Shown here: one piece after another, positions 61,616-62,257 of the stretch
Position numbering within the stretch: position 1 is the stretch's first letter
How the letters are laid out: every line of letters starts with the position of its first letter
NCBI GenBank assembly: GCA_023374045.1
Contig: CM041778.1
Span: forward strand, 364,596,831 to 364,660,830
Direction of reading: 5' to 3'
DNA length: 64,000 nt
Source: Limonium bicolor
Taxonomy: Eukaryota; Streptophyta; Magnoliopsida; Caryophyllales; Plumbaginaceae
Notes under the pieces: model-generated
Seen by the model: only the letters and a program-made list of their open reading frames with translations
What the model was told of the DNA's origin: nothing
Databases searched by the model: none
Position numbers and translations under genes: made by a program

Positions 61616-62257
61616 TTAAGGTATTACATGGCTAATAAAGGTTAAGTTTAGTCGTCCTGGTCTCATGTGCGTCGCATTGATTACTGCTGACGGTGCTGTA
61701 TTCAGCTTAATCTTCATAATCCCATGGTACAACATTCTTGACTCTCCATCCATGATTAACACGTCTCTAGACTTAAGTAGCAACTTCTTGGCACGGTCCA
61801 CACGCTTCTGCTCGCCATATAGGAATTCAGCGTCGTCTCCAATGGACCAAGACACTACGGGTATCCCCCTTTCAAGAGACTCTGTTGTCTTGTCCTTATC
61901 TTGGTGTAATCCAAGTCGTCCTTCTTTCTCGTAGAAGTTGTCGATGCATAAGTCTGCTTGTATGTCTAGGATCGGATCAGCTTCAAGTTGTTGAGCGATC
62001 TCCACGGCTTGTGTGACAACCGGATGGAACTCCTTGGGTATTTCCAGTGGTGATGCTCCATCTTGCACTCTCATATTCTGGTATGTTTTGGCATACGGAT
62101 TCCAATCCTTGCCTAAGCTAATCATCCTTAACTTCATCTTCGCTCCTCCAGGGTACTCTGGTGTATAGAAACCTCCGGATCCTACTCCTAACTGACTGCA
62201 TCTCCTGATGATGGCTATTTGTGCCTCGGGTGTCAGGTATCCCCTTAATAAAATCAT
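61616..62257 (-). CDS. AlkB-type 2-oxoglutarate/Fe(II) dioxygenase carried by element J
   Basis: 213 codons from ATG at 62257 to TAA at 61616-61618, with no stop or shift. Upstream codons VIRPG in the same frame extend the match, so the true start may be earlier or in a spliced exon. Fe(II) ligands: H118 and D120 (GLHQDKDK) and H178 (YHG). 2-oxoglutarate site: N107-F-Y109 and R202 of RLNLTF. The second Arg of the usual RxNxTxR motif is Ile (I208). Further ALKBH1-like blocks: GVGSGGFYTPEY, LRMISLGKDWNP, PVVSWSIGDDAEFLYG, MRPGRLNLTF. Known AlkB proteins remove methyl groups from DNA or RNA (m1A, m6A, 6mA, others); plant ALKBH1-like proteins are the closest by memory. It lies between gag and protease on the element's strand and lacks introns. 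Activity and substrate are unknown. Confidence 0.85.
   Translation of the reverse strand: MILLRGYLTPEAQIAIIRRCSQLGVGSGGFYTPEYPGGAKMKLRMISLGKDWNPYAKTYQNMRVQDGASPLEIPKEFHPVVTQAVEIAQQLEADPILDIQADLCIDNFYEKEGRLGLHQDKDKTTESLERGIPVVSWSIGDDAEFLYGEQKRVDRAKKLLLKSRDVLIMDGESRMLYHGIMKIKLNTAPSAVINATHMRPGRLNLTFISHVIP

What the first reader, a model, noticed from the sequence alone, without database searches (positions are those of the whole stretch)
61616..62257. LTR retrotransposon J carries an intact AlkB-type demethylase frame between gag and protease
Seen: a 213-codon open frame with HxD...H iron ligands, NxY, and the RPGRLNLTF block, in the same orientation as gag and pol of a chromovirus and placed exactly between gag knuckles and protease. 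It has no stop although gag, RT, RH and INT of the same copy do. Known: AlkB domains occur in some plant RNA viruses (Betaflexiviridae and relatives), and host ALKBH enzymes affect m6A on retrotransposon RNA in Arabidopsis. Inference: an LTR element captured an ALKBH1-like gene from a host, possibly to erase methyl marks from its RNA or cDNA, or to repair alkylated nucleic acid. I know of no described gypsy lineage with this gene.
Basis: partly seen in the sequence, partly recalled or inferred. Interest (0 to 1): 0.95.

Follow-up and report, generated by a model that had tools for sequence, protein, structure and literature searches.

The report
Jumping gene with alternative demethylase exon
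An abundant family of plant retrotransposons in sea lavender carries its own AlkB-type demethylase as an alternative exon between gag and protease, kept under natural selection and probably made as a Gag-demethylase fusion, which suggests that these elements bring along an enzyme that edits chemical marks on nucleic acid.

Summary
The frame is real: an ALKBH1-type 2OG-Fe(II) dioxygenase on the minus strand, between gag zinc knuckles and protease of a chromovirus-like LTR element in a Limonium genome (matK). It is no lone copy: active-site patterns occur at 4,825 places (family J) and 683 (a divergent family K of the same layout). Two of ten J copies examined are complete 14.5-kb elements with LTRs and target duplications. 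AlkB dN/dS is 0.12-0.14, like gag. The window copy is not intact: a TAA before the ATG, and the last Arg of RxNxTxR lost.

The new point is expression. AlkB lies inside the gag-protease intron and has its own stop. Gag|AlkB and gag|protease joints exist as genomic copies (7 and 14 places, controls 0), so the RNA is very probably spliced both ways, to in-frame Gag-AlkB or Gag-Pol. Packaging and substrate are inferred.

Precedent: Phalaenopsis Ogre-like elements with a separate ALKBH5-type ORF (PMC9289625). Enzyme class, lineage and expression differ here: a new variant of a known kind. Listings of searches showed no other case.

The parts
61616..62257 (-). AlkB (ALKBH1-type) frame from the internal ATG; 3' end drifted (TFISHVIP instead of TFRQY-stop)
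62258..62364 (-). 5' part of the AlkB exon (no ATG), corresponding to the FDIC...RPG stretch of host ALKBH1; in-frame TAA at 62285-62287 in this copy
62365..62499 (-). intron i3 between gag knuckle exon and AlkB exon (GTACC...CTTAG)
   Evidence: lost at these borders in the 7 gag|AlkB junction loci
62500..62841 (-). gag exon e3 with two CCHC zinc knuckles (seen by eye; Pfam named nothing in the c8a counterpart); one stop in this copy
62842..62920 (-). intron i2 in gag
   Evidence: lost in L052, L058, L059, L060, L061, kept in L054-L057 and L062
62921..63170 (-). gag exon e2
63171..63248 (-). putative intron i1 in gag (GT-AG); kept in the 6 junction loci that cover it
63249..63319 (-). remaining 3' end of gag exon e1; the match to gag stops here
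61488..61615 (-). stretch between AlkB frame and protease acceptor (mean 90% identity among 9 copies)
58062..61487 (-). protease, RT, RNase H and integrase, decayed; protease/pol exon acceptor at 61487
   Evidence: chromodomain-like end seen in copy c8a
53804..57884 (-). 3' LTR of this copy (five matched pieces, 75-79% to the c8a LTR)

Best explanation
Element J is a chromovirus-like Ty3/gypsy LTR retrotransposon of Limonium whose gag gene contains introns. An ALKBH1-type dioxygenase is held as an alternative exon inside the gag-protease intron. Full-length RNA keeps the introns and is the genome. RNA spliced from gag exon e3 to the protease exon skips AlkB and gives Gag-Pol. RNA spliced from the same donor to the AlkB acceptor gives, in frame, a Gag-AlkB protein that ends at AlkB's own stop. 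Shown: anatomy, abundance, genomic copies that lack these introns at the predicted borders, same reading phase, and purifying selection. Inferred: that those copies come from spliced RNA, that the spliced RNAs are translated, that the Gag part brings the enzyme into the particle beside knuckle-bound RNA and nascent single-stranded cDNA, and that it removes N-methyl groups there: m6A on element RNA, or 6mA/1mA/3mC on single-stranded DNA. The likely gain is escape from m6A-dependent silencing or repair of the copy. J and K share the layout at about 60% AlkB identity, so the arrangement is old (inferred).
For: PF13532 4.7e-45 in copy c8a. AlphaFold model of one AlkB exon, pLDDT 90.9; best fold match OsALKBH1, TM 0.84/0.90. 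Seven active-site residues kept in 27 of 30 distinct protein-ranked copies (the last Arg was not among the seven). LTR pairs 98.0% and 95.7% with TSDs GGGCA and TTCGC. 4,825 J and 683 K places, reversed-pattern controls 0. Gag|AlkB joint at 7 places, 2 exact; gag|protease joint at 14, 8 exact; controls 0. In the 7 loci of the first kind and the 4 fetched of the 14, exon follows exon at the predicted border (in L058 the alignment resumes at base 6 of the AlkB exon), with i2 removed in some and kept in others. K: gag|protease joint at 4 places with 2-3 mismatches, control 0, same phase. dN/dS: AlkB 0.144 (7 copies, 21 pairs) in copies chosen by junction, not by AlkB (gag exons 0.127-0.145, protease 0.253), and 0.116 in ten protein-ranked copies (RT 0.075). 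Variable sites by codon position 39/31/103.
Against: No RNA or protein data. Junction places are not all independent (some lie close together or in tandem; three of the four K places lie within 72 kb). The K gag|AlkB joint could not be searched (9 tries unanswered). In the junction-sampled set 6 of 7 AlkB frames have frameshifts by alignment and 1 also a stop (perhaps assembly indels in part); among the 30 protein-ranked loci 6 have stops in AlkB. The 105-nt start of the AlkB exon is weakly constrained (dN/dS 0.31 and 0.59). Only 2 of 10 copies gave an LTR pair within 10 kb. In the best tree K lies nearer to host ALKBH1 than to J. Substrate and packaging are inference.
Confidence: 0.72

Rival explanations
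1. AlkB is a separate accessory protein translated from the internal ATG (MILL...), as in the Phalaenopsis element, and not a Gag fusion; the upstream intron only removes leader sequence.
For: An ATG opens the conserved catalytic domain; the 105 nt upstream are less constrained (dN/dS 0.31 and 0.59); the Phalaenopsis ORF2 is separate.
Against: The upstream part stays in frame: 1 of 10 protein-ranked copies (the window copy) has a stop and 1 of 7 junction copies frameshifts there; it matches the FDIC...RPG part of host ALKBH1, has no ATG in the copies shown, and gag donor and AlkB acceptor share phase in J and K.
Confidence: 0.22
2. The joined copies are genomic deletions through short homologies (AGG at both ends) and the element is not spliced.
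For: Donor and acceptor share AGG, so a micro-homology deletion could give the same joint (sequences); some junction places are close neighbours.
Against: Two different joints from one donor, plus loss of i2 in some of the same loci and not in others, GT-AG borders, and a gag|protease joint in K.
Confidence: 0.06
3. The enzyme is kept for repair of alkylated element RNA or cDNA (1mA, 3mC), as proposed for plant RNA viruses, rather than for erasing regulatory methyl marks. This concerns the substrate and can hold together with the best explanation.
For: The next solved fold matches after OsALKBH1 are E. coli AlkB repair complexes; repair is the idea quoted for viral AlkB (PMC9289625 discussion).
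Against: Nothing here separates the two; plant ALKBH1 orthologs are described as 6mA demethylases, above all on single-stranded DNA (PMC12973404 passages).
Confidence: 0.35
4. Plain capture of a pseudogene or chance open frame without function.
For: The window copy itself is damaged, and other copies have stops or frameshifts.
Against: Thousands of places, constraint like gag, catalytic residues kept in 27 of 30 copies, presence in two divergent families.
Confidence: 0.02

Closest known systems
Phalaenopsis Ty3/gypsy elements with AlkB (Gypsy_Pa_2799; PMC9289625: abstract, introduction, three results sections and discussion read)
   Same: Plant Ty3/gypsy LTR element with a PF13532-type 2OG-Fe(II) dioxygenase of host origin and conserved cofactor residues; many copies
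   Different: There: Tat/Ogre lineage, 25 kb, ALKBH5-type (kin of ALKBH9B/10B), separate ORF2 beside one Gag-Pol ORF, m6A demethylation shown in vitro. Here: chromovirus-like, 14.5 kb, ALKBH1-type, alternative exon in the gag-protease intron, no assay
Host plant ALKBH1 (OsALKBH1, ALKBH1A-D)
   Same: Same fold and active site; 51% identity in the fold match to OsALKBH1
   Different: The 21 host proteins used form one clade (100/100) apart from the element-type sequences; the element forms have a shorter loop before the D-C-NFY motif than the 7 host rows
Ogre retrotransposons with a gag-pol intron (stated in PMC9289625; titles on Ogre splicing seen in the reference list of PMC6317226)
   Same: Intron between gag and pol; partial splicing
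   Different: Non-chromovirus lineage; PMC9289625 says Ogre elements typically lack the extra AlkB ORF
AlkB domains of plant RNA viruses (Alpha-, Betaflexiviridae, Closteroviridae; cited in PMC9289625)
   Same: Mobile genetic element carrying AlkB
   Different: RNA viruses; domain in the replicase (recalled)

Membership tests
Ty3/gypsy LTR retrotransposon | paired LTRs, 5-bp TSD, tRNA-type PBS, PPT, gag-PR-RT-RH-INT order | tested here: met
   2 of 10 copies with LTR pair and TSD; PBS TGGTATCAGAGC after the LTR and AAGGGGGG before the 3' LTR; domains by Pfam. Of the other 8 copies one is tandem and 7 gave no LTR pair within 10 kb
chromovirus | chromodomain after integrase | tested here: inconclusive
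   PF00385 at 9.6e-4, 19.5 bits, below the 25.1-bit cut-off, at the expected place in c8a; pol nearer to the window's element at 22-25 kb, presumed chromovirus (67.8 and 72.5% in the two best stretches), than to the Athila-like one (39-53% in the three best)
Tekay/Del clade | RT/INT position in reference trees | not tested
   No reference elements fetched; name from memory of sequence style, long LTRs and PBS
AlkB family, ALKBH1 class | PF13532 fold, HxD...H, NxY, RxNxTxR, closest to ALKBH1 | tested here: met
   the window copy lacks the last Arg, 9 of 9 other copies looked at have it
Phalaenopsis AlkB-gypsy family | Ogre/Tat lineage, ALKBH5-type domain, separate ORF2 | tested here: not met
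   chromodomain-like end, ALKBH1-type domain, AlkB exon between gag and protease against the descriptions
alternatively spliced retroelement | two splice products from one donor | tested here: met
   both joints present as genomic copies, 7 and 14 places, controls 0; indirect, RNA not available
methyl eraser acting on element nucleic acid | demethylation of m6A, 6mA, 1mA or 3mC | not testable with these tools
   needs biochemistry

The most novel reading that the evidence does not exclude
One ancient capture of ALKBH1, before the host ALKBH1 genes of the sampled angiosperms diverged, founded a wide lineage of plant retrotransposons that use a splice switch between Gag-Pol and a particle-borne Gag-demethylase fusion, so that the element erases methyl marks on its own genome inside the particle.
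Probability: 0.35. Interest if true: 0.93.

Novelty: new variant of a known kind. Interest (0 to 1): 0.82.

Why it matters
Together with the orchid case it shows that plant retrotransposons acquired AlkB enzymes more than once, from different ALKBH classes, which argues that methyl marks on their nucleic acid matter to them. A Gag fusion would place an eraser in the particle, so the question whether hosts restrain retroelements through m6A or 6mA, and whether elements fight back, becomes testable with one enzyme. It also points to a retroelement using an alternative exon much as retroviruses use splicing.

Tried and rejected
Tried without result: viral-contig scan for relatives, 12 pattern stretches and no confirmed relative. 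Annotated relatives in other named plants: the named hits that ranked high in the profile search (Smallanthus, Aegilops, Artemisia) look like host ALKBH1 proteins with repeated domains (120 of 1,694 hits listed, 12 proteins read). Element-like relatives P0001-P0004, P0024, P0042 come from unnamed ENA or Logan contigs, so their plants are unknown. Host ALKBH1 of Limonium: the 82 scored of 45,753 candidates look like multi-copy element frames (recurring 252/259-aa frames; 4 fetched, 4 were elements), so the donor gene was not isolated. A first dN/dS script used a wrong protease frame and off-frame pieces and was replaced by codon alignment; one search is not used. In one search two loci entered twice (L002=L032, L005=L033) among 32 rows, and copies were chosen by protein similarity, which lowers dN/dS; one search adds a set not chosen on AlkB. 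Rejected: chance frame, processed pseudogene.

Full report
What is there. Window 61616-62257 is an open 213-codon frame on the minus strand. It matches PF13532 over its length (5.5e-38) and rice OsALKBH1 best among solved structures (5.4e-64). On the same strand, upstream lie gag exons with two zinc knuckles (62500-63319, first part missing), downstream protease and the rest of pol (61487-58062) and a 3' LTR (57884-53804). No 5' LTR was found in the window or the next 10 kb.

Host. The window lies on a 405-Mb contig of a 2.92-Gb assembly. A matK fragment of the assembly is 95% identical to Limonium carolinianum over 81% of the query, so the plant is a Limonium (sea lavender). Eight contigs of 136-540 Mb add up to 2.82 Gb; L. 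bicolor would fit that (recalled).

The window copy is decayed. The coding exon begins 107 nt before the frame's ATG, at an AG acceptor (62364), and continues in frame (RFNICYP...IRPG and the like) in the other copies; in the window copy that part holds a TAA (62285-62287). The frame ends TFISHVIP, where 9 of the 9 other copies looked at read TFRQY-stop, so the last Arg of RxNxTxR is gone.

Copies. A protein search of the genome scored 150 of 49,835 first-look candidates, and the 150 matched. Patterns for the active-site stretch with up to 3 mismatches occur at 4,825 places (J) and 683 (K), with no match to the reversed pattern. Of 10 copies taken with 10 kb on each side, 2 showed an LTR pair (4.1 kb; 98.0% and 95.7% identical), 1 is part of a tandem repeat, and 7 including the window showed no such pair within that span. 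The two complete ones measure 14,579 and 14,505 bp and have target duplications GGGCA and TTCGC. The PBS follows the LTR. At 1.3e-8 changes per site and year (recalled) the LTRs date these insertions to about 0.8 and 1.7 million years.

Lineage. The integrase end carries a chromodomain-like stretch (PF00385 9.6e-4, under the cut-off). J pol is 67.8 and 72.5% identical in its two best stretches to the window's other gypsy element at 22-25 kb, and 39-53% in the three best to the Athila-like one at 16-19 kb. I take it for a Tekay-type chromovirus from style and LTR length, without a reference tree.

Introns and the alternative exon. Gag is split by short gaps with GT-AG borders. Between the knuckle exon and AlkB lies an intron of about 135 nt, and between the AlkB stop and the protease acceptor some 130-165 nt. 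Knuckle donor to AlkB acceptor and knuckle donor to protease acceptor both continue in frame, in the same phase. If this is splicing, reverse transcription of spliced RNA should now and then leave joined copies. Such copies exist: the 30-base joint gag|AlkB is found at 7 places (2 exact, 2 with one, 2 with two, 1 with three mismatches), the joint gag|protease at 14 (8, 2, 2, 2), the reversed patterns nowhere. In 6 of the 7 loci of the first kind the exons touch at the predicted base; in the seventh, L058, the alignment resumes at base 6 of the AlkB exon, in register. i2 is also gone in L052 and L058, kept in L054-L057, and not covered in L053; i1 is kept in the six loci that cover it. In the 4 fetched of the 14 loci of the second kind the exons touch too; i2 is gone in 3 and kept in 1. 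Several places are neighbours, so the number of separate events is smaller than 21, but the different intron combinations need more than one. A deletion at the shared AGG is the rival.

A second family. A search with a host-type ALKBH1 led to K copies. In the 4 loci fetched, a knuckle-like exon, an AlkB exon and protease follow one another; AlkB is 60-61% identical to J and protease 43-54% in its longest stretches (translated comparison). Sites and phase agree. The K gag|protease joint occurs at 4 places with 2-3 mismatches, three of them within 72 kb, control 0; the K gag|AlkB joint could not be searched.

Selection. Among 32 rows (30 loci) ranked by protein likeness, median pairwise dN/dS is 0.10-0.16 in the bins of dS from 0.05 to 1 (0.25 below 0.05); 6 of the 30 loci have stops in AlkB. 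As that choice is biased, I used the junction-sampled copies too: AlkB 0.144 (7 copies, 21 pairs), gag exons 0.145, 0.129 and 0.127, protease 0.253; in ten protein-ranked copies AlkB 0.116 (44 pairs), gag 0.138-0.189, protease 0.215, RT 0.075. The 105-nt start of the exon is less constrained (0.59 and 0.31). In the junction set 6 of 7 AlkB frames have frameshifts, and some of those copies show many small shifts in several exons, which may be assembly errors. Seven active-site residues are kept in 27 of 30 protein-ranked copies.

Origin. In a tree of 42 proteins the 21 angiosperm ALKBH1 form one clade (100/100) on a long branch; J groups with P0001 and P0003 (97/89) and weakly with P0024 (86/55), K weakly with P0002 (85/73). 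In the best tree K and P0002 lie next to the host clade (93/86), which would mean more than one capture; holding all element-type sequences together costs 1.62 log-likelihood units and is not rejected (p-AU 0.425). An earlier tree without K had the element types together (95/96). The shared layout, splice sites and phase of J and K favour one old capture, but fast evolution in elements could also lengthen the branch. The Limonium donor gene was not found.

How it works. Shown: an ALKBH1-type exon with its active site kept in 27 of 30 copies, under constraint, placed so that one donor can serve Gag-Pol or Gag-AlkB, and copies with either joint. Inferred: Gag-AlkB co-assembles with Gag and acts on packaged RNA or nascent cDNA. 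A review states that plant ALKBH1 orthologs demethylate 6mA, above all in single-stranded DNA, that ALKBH9B releases Onsen RNA from stress granules by removing m6A, and that m6A on chromatin-associated retrotransposon RNA promotes heterochromatin in Arabidopsis (PMC12973404, passages). Either escape from such marking or repair of the copy would pay.

Known or new. Alvarado-Marchena et al. 2022 (PMC9289625; abstract, introduction, three results sections and discussion read) describe AlkB in Phalaenopsis Ogre-like elements, of ALKBH5 type, as ORF2, with m6A demethylation in vitro, and found the domain in no other genome of their 121-angiosperm screen. A 2025 review (PMC12786077, passages) and an orchid editorial (PMC9885250, passage) name only that case; a 2025 Retand paper cites it in its reference list and holds no 'AlkB' in the main text (PMC11963269); two m6A reviews show no such element in the passages returned (PMC12454794, PMC12454768). 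The listings of searches in the held library showed no other; subscription papers and preprints are not held. So the kind is known and this is a new variant: other enzyme class, other lineage, other expression.

Noticed in passing
G000 C1:1430334-1461738, C1:49203390-49245015; C7:176586045-176609315; L011/L012: J active-site matches lie in head-to-tail series at about 10.4 kb spacing (one LTR plus one internal region), K at about 11.6 kb; such arrays seem unusual for LTR elements (my judgement).
   Followed up: no
window 62842-62920 and 63171-63248 (-): Gag itself is split by two short gaps with GT-AG borders; the other gypsy element of the window (ORF 21251-22009 +) has the matching gag stretch uninterrupted, so introns may have been gained inside a retroelement gag.
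   Followed up: partly
window 62365-62499 and 61488-61615 (-): The stretches on both sides of the AlkB exon are as conserved as the coding parts (mean identity 87% and 90% in 9 copies), as if they held splice-control sequence.
   Followed up: no
window 63320-64000: The match to gag stops at 63319; what lies beyond and displaced the 5' part of this copy was not identified.
   Followed up: no
L052, L054, L057, L058: Many small frameshifts with few stops in several exons, perhaps indel errors of the assembly.
   Followed up: no
P0001-P0004, P0024, P0042: Element-type ALKBH1 relatives (57-71% identical) in unnamed ENA or Logan contigs; their source plants would date the capture.
   Followed up: partly
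P0241, P0242, P0243: Host-type ALKBH1 proteins with repeated AlkB domains or parts in Smallanthus (with an RRM), Aegilops and Artemisia.
   Followed up: no
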